The notes beneath the pieces are model-generated. The model was given only the letters and a program-made list of their open reading frames with translations, ran no database searches and had not been told where the DNA came from. A stretch of DNA of 33,711 bases from Oscillospiraceae bacterium. GTDB taxonomy: Bacteria; Bacillota; Clostridia; Oscillospirales; Oscillospiraceae. Made by a program: the position numbers and the translations under genes. The first letter of the stretch is position 1; the number at the start of each line of letters is the position of its first letter. Shown here in pieces: positions 11,032 to 21,398 of the stretch. The stretch covers positions 1 through 33,711 of the forward strand of contig CADAHL010000015.1 of the NCBI GenBank assembly GCA_902787755.1, given 5' to 3'.

Positions 11032-12870
11032 ATGTGCGGTATCGTGGGATATGTGGGCAGAGAGCAGGCGGCGCCCATTCTGCTGGACGGCCTGGAGCAC
11101 CTGGAGTACCGGGGCTACGACTCCGCCGGTGTGGCGGTGCTGGGCCCCACACGGGGGCTGCAGATGAAAAAGGCCAAGGGCCGGCTGAAGGTCCTCAGCG
11201 CCATGGTGGACGGGGGCCGGACCATGGAGGGCTGCCTGGGCATCGGGCACACCCGCTGGGCCACCCACGGCCAGCCCAACGACGTCAACTCCCACCCCCA
11301 CCTGAGCCAGGACGAGCGCATCGCCGTGGTCCATAACGGGATCATCGAAAACTACGTGGAGATCAAGGAATTTCTCATCTCCCAGGGGATCCGCTTCCAG
11401 TCGGAGACCGACACCGAGGTGGTGGCCCAGCTGCTGGGCTTCTACTACAAGGAGACCGGAGACCTGATGGGCTCGGTCTATCGGGTGCTCCACCGGATCG
11501 AGGGGGCTTACGCCCTGGGCATCCTCTGCGCCGATGTGCCCGACGCCTTCGTGGCCGCCCGGAAGGACGCGCCGCTGCTGCTGGGCTACGGCGAGGGCTG
11601 CAGCTTTGTGGCCTCGGACGTGACGGCCATCATCAAGCACACCCGGGACGTGTCCTATATGGAGGACGGCGAGGTGGCGGTGGTGCGCGCCGACGGCATC
11701 CGGGTCTTCAACGCCATGGGCCAGCCCATCGAGAAGGAGCACAGCTTCATCGACTGGGACGTGAGCGCCGCGGAAAAGGGCGGCTATCCGCATTTCATGT
11801 TCAAGGAGATCCTGGAGCAGCCGGAGGCGGTGCGCAAGACGGTCTCCCCCCGGCTTCGCAACGGGGAGATCTGCTTTGAGGAGCTGAGCCTGACGGACGA
11901 GCAGATCCGGGCCTACAAGCGGCTCTTCATCGTGGCCTGCGGCTCCAGCTACCACGTGGGCATGGTGGGCAAGTACAACCTGGAGCGGCTGCTGCGCATC
12001 CCGGTGGACGTGATGCTGGCCTCCGAATTCCGCTACGCGGACCCGCTGGTGGATCAGGATACCCTGGTCATCGTCATCAGCCAGTCCGGCGAGACCCTGG
12101 ACACCATGGCCGCCCTGCGCCAGGCCAGGGCCCTGGGCGGGCGGATCCTGTCCATCGTGAACGTGGTGGGCAGCTCCATCGCCCGGGAGGCGGACGACGT
12201 GCTCTACACCTGGGCCGGACCGGAGATCGCCGTGGCCACGACAAAGGCCTACAGCACCCAGCTGGTGCTGCTGGATATGCTGGGCCTGTACTTTGCCCGG
12301 ATCCGGGGCAGCGTGACCGAGGAGGAATCCGAGCGAATCCTGGAGGGTCTGCGGGCCCTGCCCGAGATGATGGAGCGGGTGCTGCAGGAGAAGGAGGAGA
12401 TCCAGTATCTGGCCTCCCGCTACTTCAACCACGACTCCGTGTTCTATATCGGCCGGAACCTGGACTACGCCCTGGGCCTGGAGAGCAGCCTGAAGCTGAA
12501 GGAGATCTCCTATATCCACTCCGAGGCCTACGCCTCCGGCGAACTGAAGCACGGCACCATCTCCCTCATTGAGCCGGGCACCCTGGTGGTGGCTCTGGGG
12601 ACCTACACACCCCTGTTTGAGAAGACCCTGTCCAATATCGTGGAGGTCCAGGCCCGGGGCGCGGATGTGGTGGCCCTGACCACCGAGAGCCGCCGGGACG
12701 ATATGCGCAAGACCGTGCCCAACGTGCTGACCGTGCCGGATACCCACGTGATCCTGGAGCCCTCCCTGGGCATCATCCCCATGCAGCTGTTCGCCTACTA
12801 TGTGGCGCTGCAGCGGGGCTGCGATATCGACAAGCCCAGAAATCTGGCAAAATCCGTCACGGTGGAGTAG
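11032..12870 (+). CDS. glmS: Glutamine--fructose-6-phosphate aminotransferase (isomerizing)
   Basis: The 612-residue cytoplasmic enzyme makes glucosamine-6-phosphate from fructose-6-phosphate and glutamine, the first step to UDP-GlcNAc and peptidoglycan. After Met removal the N-terminal Cys2 (MCGIVGYVG) is the glutaminase nucleophile; HTRWATHG (about 73-80) and EYRGYDSAG are typical of the class II amidotransferase domain. Two SIS sugar-isomerase domains follow (VACGSSYHVGM, ISQSGETLDT, and HGTISLIEPG in the second), and the protein ends KPRNLAKSVTVE as in the family. The ATG follows GAAGGAGGC. The leader is short and lacks the glmS ribozyme found in many Firmicutes, so feedback control must differ. 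Confidence 0.98.
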   Translation: MCGIVGYVGREQAAPILLDGLEHLEYRGYDSAGVAVLGPTRGLQMKKAKGRLKVLSAMVDGGRTMEGCLGIGHTRWATHGQPNDVNSHPHLSQDERIAVVHNGIIENYVEIKEFLISQGIRFQSETDTEVVAQLLGFYYKETGDLMGSVYRVLHRIEGAYALGILCADVPDAFVAARKDAPLLLGYGEGCSFVASDVTAIIKHTRDVSYMEDGEVAVVRADGIRVFNAMGQPIEKEHSFIDWDVSAAEKGGYPHFMFKEILEQPEAVRKTVSPRLRNGEICFEELSLTDEQIRAYKRLFIVACGSSYHVGMVGKYNLERLLRIPVDVMLASEFRYADPLVDQDTLVIVISQSGETLDTMAALRQARALGGRILSIVNVVGSSIAREADDVLYTWAGPEIAVATTKAYSTQLVLLDMLGLYFARIRGSVTEEESERILEGLRALPEMMERVLQEKEEIQYLASRYFNHDSVFYIGRNLDYALGLESSLKLKEISYIHSEAYASGELKHGTISLIEPGTLVVALGTYTPLFEKTLSNIVEVQARGADVVALTTESRRDDMRKTVPNVLTVPDTHVILEPSLGIIPMQLFAYYVALQRGCDIDKPRNLAKSVTVE

Positions 12871-15800: not shown

Positions 15801-16601
15801 TCACGCCACCAGCCACTTGTACTTCTCCACGCTGTACAGCGGGACGAAGGGCAGCAGGATGGGCACGGTCTTGACGTACTTCTGGTACTCGGGGTCCTTG
15901 CCGTAGTTCTTGTTCTGGCGGATCTCCAGACGGCGGGCGCCGGAGAACATGACGAAGATGATGCCGCCGTAGCCCAGCAGGCACACCAGCCACTGCCAGC
16001 CGCGGACCGCGCCGATGCCGGAGATGAACACGCCGGTCCAGAAGATCATCTCGCCCAGGTAGTTGGGGCAGCGGACGATGCGGAACAGGCCGGTGTCCAC
16101 AAAACGCTTGGGGTTGACCTTCTTGGCTTTGTTCTTCTGAATGTCAGCGGCGGACTCCAGGGTGATGCCGCAGATCATGATCACAGCGCTGATGTAGACC
16201 CAGGCGTTGGAGCCGGCGTTGTTATACAGCCGGAAGAACACAGGGGAGACCTGGGTGGCGTAGAGCAGGGCGCAGGTGACCCAGATGGCCAGCTTCACGC
16301 CCATGGGGACGGTCTTGCCGTCCTTGATCTCGCCCACCATGTTTTTCTTGTAGGAGCTGCTCTTCAGTTCCCGGTAGGCCAGATATCCGCCCAGGCGGCA
16401 GCCGTAGAGGAAGAAGATCACGCAGCACAGGATGGTGCCCAGGGTCAGGGTCTTGCCGAAGAGGATCAGCATCAGAAGGCCCGCGGCGGCGATGGAGAAG
16501 CCGTAGCCCAGGGAGATGAACCAGACGTAGTTTTTAAAGCCGATGGAGCTGACGAGCATCGCCAGCGCGAAGAGAAGCCAGAAATACCAGGCAGGATACA
16601 T
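15801..16601 (-). CDS. DUF1295 / steroid 5-alpha-reductase-like membrane enzyme
   Basis: A 266-residue polytopic protein with about six to seven membrane segments. The C-terminal conserved region reads GLFRIVRCPNYLGEMIFWTG (171-190), matching the R.RHPNY.GE motif of DUF1295, steroid 5-alpha-reductase and isoprenylcysteine methyltransferase proteins, with Cys in place of the usual His before Pro. EIRQNKNYGKDPEYQKY near the end is also typical. Family members reduce enone double bonds of steroids or methylate prenyl groups in the membrane, so the chemistry is not settled. The ATG follows GAAAGAAGG. It is the last gene of the operon that starts at 18891, 28 bp after its neighbour, and ends at a strong terminator. 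Context suggests reductive work on a hydrophobic substrate. Confidence 0.82.
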   Translation of the reverse strand: MYPAWYFWLLFALAMLVSSIGFKNYVWFISLGYGFSIAAAGLLMLILFGKTLTLGTILCCVIFFLYGCRLGGYLAYRELKSSSYKKNMVGEIKDGKTVPMGVKLAIWVTCALLYATQVSPVFFRLYNNAGSNAWVYISAVIMICGITLESAADIQKNKAKKVNPKRFVDTGLFRIVRCPNYLGEMIFWTGVFISGIGAVRGWQWLVCLLGYGGIIFVMFSGARRLEIRQNKNYGKDPEYQKYVKTVPILLPFVPLYSVEKYKWLVA

Positions 16602-16629: not shown

Positions 16630-17235
16630 TTACAGCTTGAATTCCCGGAGGCCGCCCTTGTACAGCGTCCGGACGCCAAAGAACAGCAGCAGCTGGCCCA
16701 GGGTGTTGACCCCCTGCTCGATCCAGTTGGCGGAGGCGGTCTCTCCACCCCGGGAGGCCAGGTAGCCCATGCCCATGTAGCAGAAGAAGCAGAGGATGAA
16801 AATGGGGATCAGCCAGGCTCTTTTCATTTTCCCGGCCACCACGCCGAGACCTGCGCACATGCCGCCCAGGCCCAGCACCATCATGCTGATGCAGCCCAGG
16901 GTCAAGGGAGCCATCAGCGCCGCCGTTTTCTTTTTCAGGGCCAGCATCAGCACGATGGACAGGCCCGTCAGCAGCAGACCGACGGATTCCAGCGGCAGGA
17001 ACAGATTGTTGAGCAGCGGAAAGGCGCCGATCCCGGTGGCGATCAGCAGCTTATAGGTGGCCTTCAGGATCCCGGCCAGGAAGGCGATGCACACGCCGCC
17101 GTCCAGGCAGGCGAAGACGCCCCCGGCCATTTTGTTGTACAGGCTGCGCATCAGCATCACGCCGCTGACGCCGAAGAGAATGCTGGGGATGTAGTCGAAC
17201 AGCGCCATGGGGATGGTAAAAACATATCCTTCCAT
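16630..17235 (-). CDS. Polytopic membrane protein, unknown function
   Basis: I do not recognise this 201-residue protein. It has six or seven hydrophobic segments with short loops: MALFDYIPSILFGVSGVMLM near the start, then GGVFACLDGGVCIAFLAGIL, a stretch ending FLPLESVGLLLTGLSIVLML, two or three further segments, and a short basic end (LYKGGLREFKL). Glycine and cysteine are frequent in the membrane parts. The start ATG at 17235 is preceded by GGGGGGACC, a purine-rich but not classical site. It sits 12 bases after the flavin-reductase-like gene and 28 before the DUF1295 gene in one operon, so it probably acts as a partner or transporter in the same pathway. Confidence 0.75.
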   Translation of the reverse strand: MEGYVFTIPMALFDYIPSILFGVSGVMLMRSLYNKMAGGVFACLDGGVCIAFLAGILKATYKLLIATGIGAFPLLNNLFLPLESVGLLLTGLSIVLMLALKKKTAALMAPLTLGCISMMVLGLGGMCAGLGVVAGKMKRAWLIPIFILCFFCYMGMGYLASRGGETASANWIEQGVNTLGQLLLFFGVRTLYKGGLREFKL

Positions 17236-17247
17236 GGTGGTCCCCCC

Positions 17248-18186
17248 TTACTTTTTGGCCTTCTCCTTGGCTCGCTTGTCGTTGATGATCTTCATTTCCT
17301 TCTCGGTGATCTCGGTGACGCCGTTCTCCTTGGCCCAGGCCACGCAGCCCTTGAGCACCGTGGGCAGGAAGATCCTGGGCACGTTCAGGATGGTCTGCAG
17401 GGCGTCGTCGGTGAAGTGGACGTTGGGATCGGTGCGGTCGGCGGCGTAGCGCACGGAGGACAGGGTGGCCTCCCGCAGCGGCAGGATCTCGGGCACCAGG
17501 CGCGGGGTCCGGGCAAACCAGAAGTTCTTGCTGTCCCGATAGCCGTGGCAGACCAGCACGTTGGGCCACAGGCGGCCCTTCACGCCGTTGATGATGTTGT
17601 CATAGTACTTGGGCTTCATCAGAACCTTGTCGATGCGCAGGATGAAGTGGGCGCCGTACTGGGTGGTGATGCCGTTGAAATCCCGGTAGGGAGGGGGATA
17701 GCAGCCGTCCACCAGCTGGCGGCCGATGTCCTCGGTGGCGTTCTCCAGATCGCTCATCCAGGTGCACTCCATGACCTGATAGGCCTCGGAAACCACTTTG
17801 GGCCGGGGAGTCTTGGGATCCTCGGCGATGCACAGACCGTCCTCCAGGGTGAAGCCGAAGTTCTTCATCTTCTCGGCGGGGGTGTCGCCGGGCCAGCCCT
17901 GGGCCACGATCTTCTTGTGGTAGCCCCGTCCCTCGGGCATGAAGTTGATGGCCACCTGCTTGCGCCCGGCCAGCAGATGCTGGGCGGTGTTGGAGGAGTT
18001 GCGGGCCTCCAGGACCATGGCGTAGTAGCCCTTGCCGGCGATGTAGTAGGGGAAGCACAGGGAGTAGGAGCCTACCGATGTGCTGCCGTCCTCAGCCAGG
18101 GTGGAGATCATGACCGTGGGCATGGGGTAGTAGGAGCTGGTCTGGTAGAAGTTGTCTACGATGCGAAGGTCTTTGAAGCTGCTCAT
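17248..18186 (-). CDS. Flavin-reductase-like protein with C-terminal PCP_red-like domain
   Basis: The 312-residue soluble protein starts with a flavin reductase / FMN-binding split-barrel pattern: SYYPMPTVMISTLAEDGSTS (18-37), then SSNTAQHLLAGRKQVAINFMP (64-84). The C-terminal part from about residue 258 (FTDDALQTILNVPR..., VAWAKENGVTEITEKEM) fits the PCP_red domain (proto-chlorophyllide reductase 57 kDa subunit, PF08369), a small helical module also found in anaerobic non-photosynthetic bacteria. The tail is lysine-rich. The predicted role is FMN-dependent redox or electron transfer; the substrate is unknown. The ATG at 18186 follows AGAGAGGA. It is the second gene of the operon from 18891, 24 bases after the first. 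The domain calls are from memory of the families and should be confirmed by profile search. Confidence 0.7.
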   Translation of the reverse strand: MSSFKDLRIVDNFYQTSSYYPMPTVMISTLAEDGSTSVGSYSLCFPYYIAGKGYYAMVLEARNSSNTAQHLLAGRKQVAINFMPEGRGYHKKIVAQGWPGDTPAEKMKNFGFTLEDGLCIAEDPKTPRPKVVSEAYQVMECTWMSDLENATEDIGRQLVDGCYPPPYRDFNGITTQYGAHFILRIDKVLMKPKYYDNIINGVKGRLWPNVLVCHGYRDSKNFWFARTPRLVPEILPLREATLSSVRYAADRTDPNVHFTDDALQTILNVPRIFLPTVLKGCVAWAKENGVTEITEKEMKIINDKRAKEKAKK

Positions 18187-18210
18187 GCGATATCCTCTCT
18201 TTCTTATATA

Positions 18211-18891
18211 TTAATTTTTGCTTTTCGATTGAAACCGGGCGTAGAGCAAAAAGCACAGGGCCATGCCCACCTCACCGAACATGCTGATGTAGAAGATCAG
18301 GTCGGTGTTGCCCGTGGCGGGACCCAGGGCGGAGAACAGGAACATCAGAAAGCCGGACAGAAACAGCAGCGGCGTCTTCTGCCGGATCCACACCAGGATC
18401 CCGGCGATCATCAGGGGGATCACCGTGCCGAAGGACAGCAGCATGCTCACGCCGTTGGCCCAGGCCGGGGTGGATTCCGCCGAACGGCAGCGGACCACGC
18501 CCGCCGCCTCCACCGTCTCCAGCACCGTGGCAAAGCCCTCGGCCAGGCCCAGGGCGATGACGAGAGCGGTGAAGACCCAGACGACGGTTTTCCAGGGCTT
18601 TTTGAAGTTCAGCGCATAGGCGCAGATAGGAAAGAGCAGGGGGATCAGCCCGCCGTGGAACACGAAGCGCAGCCGGCTCAGAGGCAGGTACAGGGGCCCG
18701 GCCTGCAGGAGCCTGCCCAGGGCGATGATCAGCGGATCGTAGAACAGGCCGAAGGCCACCAGGGCCGTGAGCAGGTACAGGGGCGTCCTCTTCTCCCGCC
18801 AGCCCTTCAGAGCCAGAACAAAGATCAGCGCCTGCACCGCGGTGACCAGCCAGACCGCCGCCGGGCAGGACGCAAGCAGAAATCCTCTCAT
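18211..18891 (-). CDS. Seven-segment membrane protein, unknown function
   Basis: A 226-residue protein with about seven hydrophobic segments and short basic loops (KGWREKRT, NFKKPWK, IRQKTP); the N-terminus likely faces outside and the C-terminal tail (YARFQSKSKN) inside. A hydrophilic loop with VVRCRSAESTPAWANG (about residues 131-146) interrupts the middle. It is not assigned to a family; the pattern resembles small 7TM sensor or histidine-kinase-like input modules without any signalling domain. GGAAGGG lies 7 bases before the ATG. It is the first gene of the four-gene operon (18891 to 15801), directly behind the divergent promoter. Confidence 0.75.
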   Translation of the reverse strand: MRGFLLASCPAAVWLVTAVQALIFVLALKGWREKRTPLYLLTALVAFGLFYDPLIIALGRLLQAGPLYLPLSRLRFVFHGGLIPLLFPICAYALNFKKPWKTVVWVFTALVIALGLAEGFATVLETVEAAGVVRCRSAESTPAWANGVSMLLSFGTVIPLMIAGILVWIRQKTPLLFLSGFLMFLFSALGPATGNTDLIFYISMFGEVGMALCFLLYARFQSKSKN

Positions 18892-18945
18892 GGGATCACC
18901 CTTCCTGTGGTGTGATACGGAACATATTGTATGATCCTACAAAAA

Positions 18946-18975
18946 ATTATACTACCGGCGGGATAACACTGTCAA
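18946..18975 (-). promoter_or_regulatory. Sigma-A promoter of the four-gene redox/membrane operon
   Basis: On the minus strand TTGACA (18975-18970), 18-bp spacer, TATAAT (18951-18946); both boxes are consensus. It is divergent from the SDR promoter, with 29 bp between the two -35 boxes. Confidence 0.85.
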
Positions 18976-19004
18976 GAATTCCTCAAGGTTTTCCCCGACT
19001 GCCC

Positions 19005-19033
19005 TTGCGAAGTGTCGGAGAGACTGGTAGAAT
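19005..19033 (+). promoter_or_regulatory. Sigma-A promoter of the SDR gene
   Basis: TTGCGA (19005-19010), 17-bp spacer, TAGAAT (19028-19033), about 30 bases before the SDR ATG with CTGAGGAGG in between. Confidence 0.75.
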
Positions 19034-19061
19034 GGAGAAAAAACCTGAGGAGGCAATCGTT

Positions 19062-19862
19062 ATGAGTACCGCAGTCATTACCGGCAGCACCAGGGGCCTG
19101 GGCTTTGAGATGGCCAAGCTCTTTCACAGAGAGGGCTGGGATCTGGTTCTCAACGGCACCAACCCGGAGCGTCTGCAGAAAGCGGTGGAGCAGCTGCGCG
19201 CCCTGCCCGGCGGCCGGGTGGAGGGCAAGACCGGGAGCGTGGCCTCCGGGGAGGAGCTGCAGGCCCTGGCGGACTTCGCCGCGGAGACCTTCGGCAGCGT
19301 CCAAATCTGGATCAACAACGCCGGCGTCAACCAGCCCATGAAGGCCATCTGGGAGCTGAGCGAGGCGGAGATCGACGCCATTCTGAACATCGACCTGCGG
19401 GGCGCCATCCTGGGCAGCCGCGTGGCGGCCCGGATGATGGAAAAGCAGCCCGAAGGCGGCTTTATCTATAACCTGGAGGGCTACGGCAGCAACGACGCCA
19501 TGATGCTGGGTCTGAACCTCTACGGCACCAGCAAGCGGGCGGTGACCCACTTCACCGTGGCCCTGGCCAGAGAGCTGGAGGAGCGGGGCGGCAAGGTGAA
19601 GGCCGGGCGTCTGTCCCCGGGCATCATGATCACCGATTTCACCGTGAAGGCCCTGGGCGGCAAGGAGAGCATCCAGCTTCCGGAGAAGACCAAGAAGGTC
19701 TACAACATCCTGGGCGACTACCCCGACGTGGTAGCGGCCCATCTGGTAAAGGGTATGCTGGAAAACACCAAAAACAACGCCCACATCGAATGGCTCACCA
19801 CCGGCAAGGCCGCCTGGCGCTTCCTGACCGCCGGCTTCAACAAGAGAAACTTCTTTGACTGA
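19062..19862 (+). CDS. SDR family oxidoreductase, NYC1/NOL (chlorophyll b reductase)-like
   Basis: A 266-residue classical short-chain dehydrogenase. The cofactor motif is TGSTRGLG (7-14), the structural motif NNAG (85-88), and the catalytic Tyr/Lys are Y154 and K158 in LYGTSK. Several stretches recall plant NYC1/NOL: IWINNAGVN, RMMEKQPEGGFIYNLEGYGS and SPGIMITD, plus the C-terminal WLTTGKAAWRFLTAGFNKR. It would reduce a carbonyl with NAD(P)H; chlorophyll itself is an unlikely substrate here. AGGAGG lies 8 bases before the ATG at 19062. It is divergent from the four-gene redox operon and 27 bases ahead of a membrane protein gene on the same strand, so it likely shares a pathway with them. Confidence 0.85.
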   Translation: MSTAVITGSTRGLGFEMAKLFHREGWDLVLNGTNPERLQKAVEQLRALPGGRVEGKTGSVASGEELQALADFAAETFGSVQIWINNAGVNQPMKAIWELSEAEIDAILNIDLRGAILGSRVAARMMEKQPEGGFIYNLEGYGSNDAMMLGLNLYGTSKRAVTHFTVALARELEERGGKVKAGRLSPGIMITDFTVKALGGKESIQLPEKTKKVYNILGDYPDVVAAHLVKGMLENTKNNAHIEWLTTGKAAWRFLTAGFNKRNFFD

Positions 19863-19889: not shown

Positions 19890-21398
19890 ATGAATCCTTT
19901 GGAAAAGCCCCGTCGGCTGTGGGACGGCCTGTTCTTCCTGGGCCTGTTTCTGCTGATGTACTGCTTCTATCGCTATGCCCATCCCCTGGTGCTGGTCTCC
20001 CTGGACGACTGGGCCTACTACGGCCATGCCCGGCTGGCCATCCCCTTCCCCCGGTTCTGGAACCCCTCCCGGGTGCTGCCGGAGACCCTGATGCCCCTGG
20101 CCGGGAGTCTGGGGGCCCTGCTCTTCGGCCTGTGCGGGGACTATGTGAAGGCCCAGGTGACGTCCCTGGCCCTGGTCTTCTCCCTGTGCATCGCGGGCTA
20201 TGTGTTCTGCTTCTATGATCTGGCGCGGAAAAAGCTGACCCTGGAGCGGCCGGCGGCCATGCTGCTGAGCCTGGGCTTCCTGCTGCTGCACTTTCTGATC
20301 TTCCGGAGCCAAAAGAGCGGGAACGTGCATCTGTTCTACGAGACCGACGTGGTCTGCATCTTCTTTTATATCATCCCCGCTCTGCTGAACGGCGCCCTGC
20401 TGATGCTGGATCTGGCGGAGGATCTGCTGGGCGAGCTTCTGAAGCCGGGGCGGCTGTTCCGAAAGGCTCTGACGGTGCTGGCGCTGTACCTGGCGGTGTT
20501 CTCCAACCTGTTTGGCAGCGTGCTCTTTGCCGCCTATGTGGGCGTCCGCCTGCTGGCGGCGCTGATCGGGGCGATTCGGAGAAAGCAGCCCCTTGCCGAT
20601 TTTCTGAAGGAACACCTGGCGGCGCTGCTGGTGCTGGCAAGCTGGCTTGCGGCGGTGATCTTCGAGGCCATGGGCGGCCGGGCCAAGGCGTCCGGCGGCG
20701 TGGGCGAGTCCCTGGGCAGCCGGTTCTCCCAGGGCCTGGGCTGGTTCGGGCTGCTGTGCCGGAAGATGAGTCCCCTGTTCCTGGGCCTGCTGGCCCTGGG
20801 CGCGCTGTTTGCCCTGATCCTGCTGCTTCTGCGGCGCCGGGACAGGGAGAAGCACCGGAGCCTGCTGGCGCCCCTGGCGCTGTTCGGGATCCTGGCGGCG
20901 CTGTGCCTGGTGTATCTGCTGCTGCTGGGCGCGGTGGTGGATCCGCCCTACCTCAACCAGCCGGGCACGGACTTCCCCTTCTTCTTTTTCCTGCCCCTGG
21001 GGCTGTGCTGGTGCCTGGGCTATGCCCTGCAGCGCTGGAAGCGGCTGCTGCTGGTGCTGCCGGTGGCGCTGCTGGTGCTCTATACCGGCATCATCACCCC
21101 CTCCCGCGCCTTCGCCGACTACAACAGCCTGGGCTTTTCCTCCAAAACCTGTATGGAGATCAATTATGACCTGATCGACCAGGTCCTCCGGGCCGAAGAG
21201 GAGGGACTCCGGGAGGTCACGCTGAAGACGATGGACTCGGGCGTTGGCTTCGACGGCTGGCCCCACAGCACCGTCTATATGGGCGACGTGCTGGCGGACC
21301 TGTTCTACCGCCACGGCCTGGTGGGCGAGTATATTGCCATCCAGATGGAGCCCAGCCAGGAATTCAACGAGGCCCACGGGCTGATTTTCTCAAAATAA
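19890..21398 (+). CDS. Large polytopic membrane protein, GT-C/DUF6056-like
   Basis: A 502-residue protein with about 11-12 hydrophobic segments. An extracytoplasmic loop after the first segment holds VSLDDWAYYGHARL (about residues 34-47); an acidic pair in the first loop is typical of GT-C fold glycosyltransferases that use polyprenyl-phosphate sugars, and the overall look resembles DUF6056 / Gtr-type proteins. The C-terminal soluble part (from about residue 405) is outside the membrane and contains EEGLREVTLKTMDSGVG. A sugar transfer to a lipid or wall polymer is the best guess, at low confidence. The ATG follows AAAAGAGAGAAAAGCC. It is probably co-transcribed with the SDR gene 27 bp upstream. 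Confidence 0.72.
   Translation: MNPLEKPRRLWDGLFFLGLFLLMYCFYRYAHPLVLVSLDDWAYYGHARLAIPFPRFWNPSRVLPETLMPLAGSLGALLFGLCGDYVKAQVTSLALVFSLCIAGYVFCFYDLARKKLTLERPAAMLLSLGFLLLHFLIFRSQKSGNVHLFYETDVVCIFFYIIPALLNGALLMLDLAEDLLGELLKPGRLFRKALTVLALYLAVFSNLFGSVLFAAYVGVRLLAALIGAIRRKQPLADFLKEHLAALLVLASWLAAVIFEAMGGRAKASGGVGESLGSRFSQGLGWFGLLCRKMSPLFLGLLALGALFALILLLLRRRDREKHRSLLAPLALFGILAALCLVYLLLLGAVVDPPYLNQPGTDFPFFFFLPLGLCWCLGYALQRWKRLLLVLPVALLVLYTGIITPSRAFADYNSLGFSSKTCMEINYDLIDQVLRAEEEGLREVTLKTMDSGVGFDGWPHSTVYMGDVLADLFYRHGLVGEYIAIQMEPSQEFNEAHGLIFSK

What the first reader, a model, noticed from the sequence alone, without database searches (positions are those of the whole stretch)
17248..19862. Two proteins with chlorophyll-enzyme-like domains face each other across a divergent promoter
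Seen: the plus-strand SDR has residue patterns (IWINNAGVN, RMMEKQPEGGFIYNLEG, WLTTGKAAWRFL) that recall plant chlorophyll b reductases NYC1/NOL rather than generic SDRs. The minus-strand flavin-reductase-like protein ends in a PCP_red-like helical module known from the light-independent protochlorophyllide reductase B subunit. Known: NYC1/NOL reduce a formyl group on a chlorin; PCP_red occurs in tetrapyrrole enzymes and some anaerobes. Inference: this spore-forming anaerobe may use the pair on dietary chlorophyll-derived or other tetrapyrrole/isoprenoid compounds, or on an endogenous polycyclic lipid.
Basis: partly seen in the sequence, partly recalled or inferred. Interest (0 to 1): 0.7.

Follow-up and report, generated by a model that had tools for sequence, protein, structure and literature searches.

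The report
Possible tetrapyrrole-reducing operon in rumen bacteria
Two genes that look like chlorophyll enzymes turn out to belong to a wider set of reductase genes in rumen and gut bacteria that probably modifies chlorophyll-derived or bile-type pigments, though no substrate has been tested.

Summary
The sequence part of the observation largely holds. The SDR (19062-19862) belongs to a bacterial SDR subfamily that groups with plant NYC1 (NYC1 letters recalled) and not with FabG. The minus-strand flavin-reductase-like protein (17248-18186) ends in a module remotely homologous to PCP_red, although the window copy alone has no Pfam hit. They do not face each other directly: a membrane-protein gene (18211-18891) lies between, and it shares the divergent promoter region with the SDR. 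The SDR is also not a conserved neighbour (3 of 49 close loci, 0 of 26 distant). What recurs is an operon around the flavin protein: MEM201 and a DUF1295 reductase, plus TetR and a NmrA-type reductase in other families. It occurs in 18 of 99 genomes surveyed, all 18 carrying the flavin protein, including the window's own genome (another contig). An EFR1 ferredoxin gene follows in some. I conclude that this is most likely an undescribed reductive tetrapyrrole (chlorophyll-catabolite or bilin) cassette of herbivore-gut Bacillota. Confidence is about 0.5; the substrate is unproven.

The parts
17248..18186 (-). FLAV: 312-aa flavin-reductase-like FMN split-barrel protein with a PCP_red-like C-terminal helical module (residues 256-306)
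17269..17421 (-). PCP_red-like module of FLAV (residues 256-306)
   Evidence: hhalign; controls
16630..17235 (-). MEM201: membrane protein without Pfam match, predicted all-helical; the most frequent neighbour of FLAV (42 of 75 loci)
   Evidence: neighbourhood
15801..16601 (-). DUF1295 / steroid-5-alpha-reductase-family membrane reductase; keeps R-C-P-N-Y-L-G-E
   Evidence: PF06966 102.6 bits, PF02544 24.3 bits; 7c83 E 0.0022; motif read, its NADPH role is recalled
18211..18891 (-). MEM226: multi-TM protein, first gene of the minus-strand run, lies between FLAV and the SDR
   Evidence: neighbourhood
19062..19862 (+). SDR: NYC1/NOL-like short-chain dehydrogenase/reductase, divergent from the operon
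18946..18975 (-). promoter-like site (12 of 12 matches, spacer 18) for MEM226-FLAV-MEM201-DUF1295
19005..19033 (+). promoter-like site (9 of 12 matches, TG before the -10) for the SDR

Best explanation
The minus-strand operon MEM226-FLAV-MEM201-DUF1295, with its divergent NYC1-like SDR here and a bilin-reductase-like gene on another contig of the same genome, is most likely a reductive cassette for dietary or host tetrapyrroles. Proposed working (inferred unless marked): a hydrophobic pigment (pheophorbide-type chlorophyll product, or a bilin) is met at the membrane by MEM201/MEM226. FLAV carries FMN in a split barrel (fold predicted: shown) and uses its PCP_red-like tail to hold or cap the pigment next to the flavin while it passes hydride or single electrons. 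The bilin-reductase-like protein reduces a double bond with electrons from the EFR1 ferredoxin/flavodoxin found beside it in relatives (gene linkage: shown). NAD(P)H reductases (NYC1-like SDR; DVR-like NmrA protein in other lineages) finish side groups: formyl to hydroxymethyl, vinyl to ethyl. DUF1295 reduces a further conjugated bond with NADPH. In other families a TetR regulator would switch the set on by the pigment. The benefit would be an electron sink and/or removal of phototoxic or membrane-active pigment.
For: PCP_red-like module. Flavin split-barrel fold. FDBR-like gene near FLAV in 7 of 49 close and 4 of 26 distant public loci and in G740, which was found through MEM201, not FLAV; the carriers include the window's genus, Erysipelotrichaceae (L077, L079) and L078/L085. 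The FDBR-like profile hits Guillardia PEBB 6qwq at E 7.1e-6 over 177 of 221 positions; 8 of 12 members hit PF05996 at E<=10, best 3.3e-6; one hits the 15,16-dihydrobiliverdin:ferredoxin oxidoreductase model at 8.2e-5 (22.5 bits, cut-off 263); the Asp of the P/S-x-x-x-x-D motif is kept in 25 of 25 copies. FDBR-like in 18 of 99 genomes (own included), all 18 FLAV+, against 1 of 199 (the window's own) in a phylum sample. EFR1 ferredoxin after FDBR in G040, and EFR1-like genes in L031, L033, L101 behind DUF1295 (243.5 bits against a cut-off of 75 for the G040 copy). SDR clade with recalled NYC1. NmrA profile against recalled DVR 68.8 bits; best solved protein 48.9 bits.
Against: No scanned member reaches the Pfam cut-off for PCP_red or Fe_bilin_red. 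The window genome's own FDBR-like copy has no hit to PF05996, though it matches the family profile at 1.3e-66. In PDB the profile's other bilin reductases are not significant (2x9o E 0.78, 2x9j 1.1). PCP_red modules also occur in other Bacillota proteins that look like CGGC and sulfite-reductase types (names recalled), so the module does not prove a chlorin substrate. Many FLAV loci have only TetR or no partner near. DUF1295 has no tetrapyrrole link that I know of. No Staygreen gene was found, but that search had no working control. In the window the FDBR-like gene is not adjacent, and the SDR sits where it lies in some relatives. Co-occurrence is confounded by descent.
Confidence: 0.5

Rival explanations
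1. Isoprenoid or sterol reduction. DUF1295 (steroid 5-alpha-reductase / polyprenal-reductase superfamily) with an SDR works by the oxidise-reduce-reduce logic of human DHRSX and SRD5A3 (recalled) on phytol released from chlorophyll, on polyprenols, or on plant sterols; FLAV supplies reduced flavin.
For: DUF1295 102.6 bits and Steroid_dh 24.3 bits; 7c83 steroid reductase E 0.0022 over 56 residues; NmrA and DUF1295 each lie near FLAV in 8 of 26 distant loci (in L076-L079, L085, L097, L099, L100 both are there); NmrA copies also score on 3Beta_HSD; membrane partners.
Against: Leaves the PCP_red-like module and the linked bilin-reductase-like gene unexplained. The SDR groups with NYC1 (recalled) rather than with E. 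coli HdhA. Only 19 of 49 close and 8 of 26 distant loci show DUF1295 near FLAV, though 30 and 17 have 2.5 kb on both sides.
Confidence: 0.22
2. Host bile pigment (biliverdin or bilirubin) reduction, functionally parallel to BilR/BilV but with other enzyme families.
For: FDBR-like gene and EFR1 ferredoxin. Herbivores excrete both biliverdin and bilirubin, and gut Bacillota reduce bilirubin by OYE enzymes (section 8 of the preprint PMC13252198; passages of PMC10769871).
Against: 14 of 75 public loci come from records that name forestomach or abomasum, where bile pigment should be scarce (general knowledge). NYC1- and DVR-like activities (formyl, 8-vinyl) fit chlorophylls better than bilins.
Confidence: 0.15
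3. General xenobiotic or redox-stress reductase operon under TetR control; the resemblances to chlorophyll enzymes are fold-level only. FLAV works like a nitroreductase, flavoredoxin or ferric reductase.
For: Best fold match is 2-nitrobenzoate nitroreductase NbaA, with flavoredoxins and a ferric reductase below. TetR near FLAV in 11 of 26 distant loci, in several without the other genes.
Against: Four separate tetrapyrrole-enzyme resemblances in one linked set are hard to get by chance. FLAV is 85-96% identical across the genus hits while MEM201 is 52-78% in the same kind of loci, which suggests a specific role.
Confidence: 0.13

Closest known systems
Plant chlorophyll b reductase NYC1/NOL
   Same: SDR subfamily: IWINNAGxN, G-x-G-S before YGxSK, SPG-x-x-x-T and the C-terminal region align nearly full length; one clade 99/96
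   Different: About 29% identity to the recalled NYC1 core, no plastid or thylakoid setting, activity untested; NYC1 letters were recalled
Light-independent protochlorophyllide reductase subunit B (BchB/ChlB), PCP_red module
   Same: C-terminal helical module; one divergent FLAV member touches the BchB models only there (E 0.004)
   Different: Attached to an FMN split barrel instead of a nitrogenase-like subunit; below the Pfam cut-off; no PF08369 match in the genome
Ferredoxin-dependent bilin reductases (PebB/PEBB, PcyA; pre-PcyA of heterotrophs)
   Same: FDBR-like neighbour aligns with 6qwq over most of its length and keeps the motif Asp
   Different: Anaerobic Bacillota, below the Pfam cut-off; context is not the haem-oxygenase/V4R/globin clusters described for pre-PcyA (passages of PMC10151467)
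Gut bilirubin reductase operons bilQRS and bilV
   Same: Gut Bacillota, reductive pigment chemistry with flavodoxin-type partner and a regulator
   Different: BilR/BilV are Old Yellow Enzymes; none is among the genes named here (passages of PMC10769871; sections 5 and 8 of the preprint PMC13252198)
Flavoredoxin / flavin reductase family
   Same: FMN split-barrel fold of the larger N-terminal part of FLAV
   Different: Only 8-14% identity in the best fold matches; carries the PCP_red-like tail

Membership tests
PCP_red (PF08369) | score over the curated cut-off (32.5 bits) | tested here: not met
   window copy none at E<=10; best member 21.1 bits, E 3.3e-4; own genome none at E<=0.001
PCP_red (PF08369) | homology of the module by profile-profile comparison | tested here: met
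   P 96%, E 1.7e-9 (single comparison), score 45.4; 200 shuffles at most 16.5, reversed 15.9
Flavin reductase-like FMN split barrel | fold and sequence family | tested here: met
   20 of 25 members hit PF01613, best 2.8e-7; Foldseek E 8.1e-8. The window copy alone has no Pfam hit
NYC1/NOL chlorophyll b reductase | phylogenetic grouping with NYC1 apart from ordinary SDRs | tested here: inconclusive
   clade 99/96, but the NYC1 sequence was recalled, not fetched
NYC1/NOL chlorophyll b reductase | reduction of the C7 formyl group of chlorophyll b | not testable with these tools
   needs enzyme assay
3-oxoacyl reductase FabG | window SDR in one clade with FabGs | tested here: not met
   p-AU 3.5e-47 with three FabGs
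Ferredoxin-dependent bilin reductase (PF05996), for the linked gene outside the window | score over the curated cut-off (31 bits) | tested here: not met
   best 27.4 bits, E 3.3e-6; 8 of 12 members at E<=10
Ferredoxin-dependent bilin reductase (PF05996), for the linked gene outside the window | homology to a solved FDBR and the motif Asp | tested here: met
   6qwq E 7.1e-6; Asp 25 of 25; that it equals catalytic D105 of PcyA is recalled
DPOR (dark-operative protochlorophyllide reductase) | BchB-type subunit with PCP_red in the genome | tested here: not met
   0 matches in G000
BilR/BilV bilirubin reductase | Old Yellow Enzyme with HGDR or AHAH motif | not tested
   no such gene among those named in the operon; the whole genome was not searched for it
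DUF1295 (PF06966) | score over the curated cut-off (20.4 bits) | tested here: met
   102.6 bits

The most novel reading that the evidence does not exclude
Herbivore-gut Bacillota carry a dedicated chlorophyll-catabolite pathway assembled from relatives of NYC1, the DPOR B-subunit tail, bilin reductase and 8-vinyl reductase. It would carry out steps of the long-known rumen conversion of chlorophyll to phylloerythrin (vinyl to ethyl, chlorin to porphyrin, formyl reduction). FLAV would be a flavin split-barrel enzyme that uses a PCP_red-type tail on a tetrapyrrole, an arrangement I know of nowhere else.
Probability: 0.25. Interest if true: 0.85.

Novelty: new variant of a known kind. Interest (0 to 1): 0.66.

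Why it matters
Grazing animals take in large amounts of chlorophyll, and its bacterial breakdown product phytoporphyrin (phylloerythrin) causes photosensitisation when the liver fails (passages of PMC3907879). I saw no paper naming the bacterial enzymes; the search for chlorophyll, rumen, phylloerythrin, bacteria and degradation listed four papers, of which I read passages of one, so this is no proof of absence. If this cassette acts on chlorophyll products or bilins it gives concrete genes to test, and it would add new enzyme families beside the Old Yellow Enzymes reported for gut bilirubin reduction.

Tried and rejected
SDR-FLAV as a functional pair defined by adjacency: rejected. In 14 stretches around the SDR of relatives only 1 (L163) shows the FLAV operon; the others have varying neighbours, with two (L156, L157) sharing some. 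In public loci it is near FLAV in 3 of 49 close and 0 of 26 distant ones (SDR hits under 60% identity were dropped before this count). Co-occurrence as proof: 16 of 16 SDR+ and 18 of 18 FDBR+ genomes are FLAV+ (Fisher 1e-8 and 4e-10, n = 61 genus genomes treated as independent, which they are not). On the Mfd tree of 57 genomes (4 of 61 left out for missing, short or unfetched Mfd) independent pairs are too few to reach significance (sign test median p 1 and 0.25). Within the genus this stays suggestive; the separate lineages carry the argument. GlmS as a species marker: dropped, genus identities fall into two groups (75-84% and 48-56%). MEM201 fold: no confident match (best E 0.21). Staygreen Mg-dechelatase: 0 of 99, no control rang, so uninformative. 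Literature: DUF1295 with flavin reductase 0 papers; bilin reductase with rumen 0 papers; searches returned mostly unrelated papers; passages of a sterol review (PMC12667688) gave nothing used here. NYC1 and DVR sequences sought in PDB: not there. My ORF caller for neighbourhood reading picks the longest frames and can show antisense frames in GC-rich loci, so the counts use tblastn.
Full report
What is in the window. The window is contig C15 of a 2.54-Mb draft genome, G000. The minus strand carries a tight four-gene run read from 18891 to 15801: MEM226 (18211-18891), FLAV (17248-18186), MEM201 (16630-17235) and DUF1295 (15801-16601), with gaps of 24, 12 and 28 bases. The plus strand carries the SDR from ATG 19062 to 19862. 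The divergent promoter region lies between MEM226 and the SDR, not between FLAV and the SDR: a 12-of-12 site at 18975-18946 for the operon and a 9-of-12 site at 19005-19033 for the SDR.

The flavin protein. Alone, the window copy matches nothing in Pfam at E up to 10. Its family does: of 25 aligned members, 20 match Flavin_Reduct and 2 match PCP_red. One divergent member matches the BchB subunit models only in its tail (E 0.004). Profile-profile comparison of the tail with 19 Bacillota PCP_red segments gives probability 96%, E 1.7e-9, score 45.4 against at most 16.5 in 200 shuffles. A genome search with the whole family profile gave three weak outside hits (E 7e-4 to 1e-3): two by its first part and one, by its last 49 positions, at the place in G373 where PCP_red had been found. 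The AlphaFold model (pLDDT 83, pTM 0.74) matches FMN split-barrel proteins, with nitroreductase NbaA, archaeal FMN-binding proteins and a flavoredoxin on top.

The SDR. It is a classical SDR with YGTSK. Full-length homologues at 42-46% identity occur in 5 of 249 phylum genomes, with no shared neighbours seen except between two of one genus. Among the 40 plasmid records listed of 108 with a match, a Nonomuraea homologue scores 148 bits over the full length and the others at most 97 bits. In a 20-row tree the window SDR, five Bacillota homologues, the Nonomuraea one and NYC1 form one clade (99/96); grouping it with three FabGs is rejected.

Are the two genes a pair? In 61 genomes of the genus (own included) FLAV is found in 25 and the SDR in 16, all 16 within the 25. 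On an Mfd tree of 57 of them most carriers lie in one clade, and the independent comparisons are too few to test. Around the SDR of 14 relatives only one stretch shows the FLAV operon. Among 75 public loci it lies near FLAV in 3 of 49 close ones and 0 of 26 distant ones. The SDR is therefore an optional partner.

What recurs. Near FLAV (centres within 4.5 kb), 35 of 49 close loci have MEM201, 25 MEM226 and 19 DUF1295. Of 26 distant loci, 11 have TetR, 8 NmrA, 8 DUF1295 and 7 MEM201 (many contigs end early: 30 of 49 and 17 of 26 have 2.5 kb on both sides). The order TetR-FLAV-NmrA-DUF1295-MEM201 recurs in Erysipelotrichaceae and other Bacillota, with small differences such as L099. A search with MEM201 alone found one further carrier in 245 class genomes besides the window's own, and that genome (G740) has TetR, FLAV, NmrA, DUF1295 and MEM201 in a row with a bilin-reductase-like gene behind.

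The missing piece. That last gene is a member of a roughly 220-aa family similar to ferredoxin-dependent bilin reductases. Its profile finds Guillardia PEBB (6qwq) among all solved proteins at E 7.1e-6, the only significant hit; 8 of 12 members match PF05996 below its cut-off; and an Asp in the P/S-x-x-x-x-D motif is kept in all 25 copies aligned, including the divergent copy in G000. It lies beside FLAV or a gene or two away in G023, G034, G038, G046, G019, G040, L033, L077, L079, L078, L085 and G740 (the L078 and L085 copies are weak relatives). It is present in 18 of 99 genomes, all 18 FLAV+, and in 1 of 199 phylum genomes, the window's own. In G000 it is on contig C1 at 67814-68458. In G040 the order is FLAV-MEM201-NmrA-FDBR-EFR1; G026, G032 and G046 have NmrA-FDBR runs, with an EFR1-like gene after it in G032 and G046. 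In L031 (G023), L033 and L101 an EFR1 hit lies downstream of DUF1295. The G040 copy is an EFR1 flavodoxin-ferredoxin (243.5 bits), a plausible electron source for a ferredoxin-type bilin reductase.

Reading. Four families in one linked set have their best known kin in chlorophyll or bilin metabolism: PCP_red, bilin reductase, NYC1 (recalled) and, for NmrA, 8-vinyl reductase DVR (recalled; 68.8 bits against 48.9 for the best solved protein). I therefore favour a reductive tetrapyrrole cassette. Of the 75 loci, 14 come from records naming a ruminant forestomach or abomasum, 7 from named parts of the intestine in the same kind of records, 23 bear RUG/RUI/RGIG codes without organ, and 31 are other, which makes dietary chlorophyll plausible. 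Gut bacteria of livestock are known to make phytoporphyrin from chlorophyll (passages of PMC3907879). Pyropheophorbide a and phytoporphyrin are isomers (recalled), so vinyl reduction coupled to chlorin oxidation would suffice. Substrate, direction and every catalytic step are inference.

Limits. Nothing scanned reaches the curated cut-offs for PCP_red or Fe_bilin_red. NYC1 and DVR are recalled. DUF1295, MEM201 and MEM226 have no tetrapyrrole precedent that I know of. The phytol or sterol reading (DUF1295 plus SDR) remains a serious rival.

Noticed in passing
G000:C1:67814-68458 (L273:7021-7659): The window's genome carries a divergent bilin-reductase-like copy, without a PF05996 match of its own but with the motif Asp.
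   Followed up: partly
L282 (G026), L283 (G032), L284 (G046), L285 (G040): A second type of locus, NmrA-FDBR(-EFR1), with FLAV only in G040; G046 has two FDBR-like genes.
   Followed up: partly
L111-L135: In other Bacillota PCP_red modules sit on proteins of about 172 aa that look like CGGC type and of about 300 aa that look like sulfite-reductase type (names recalled), so PCP_red seems a wider redox accessory module.
   Followed up: no
window 11032-12867 (GlmS): GlmS identities across the genus fall into two groups (75-84% and 48-56%), suggesting gene exchange.
   Followed up: no
window 18211-18891 (MEM226): MEM226 has many invariant charged residues in 13 aligned members (D52, H79, E118, R134, E207), which looks enzyme-like; no Pfam family.
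   Followed up: no
window 19890-21395: A 502-aa multi-TM protein without Pfam hit follows the SDR; a 66% homologue follows the SDR in G006 (L153).
   Followed up: no
L077, L079: In Erysipelotrichaceae the bilin-reductase-like gene is divergent from TetR-FLAV, much as the SDR is divergent from the operon in the window.
   Followed up: partly
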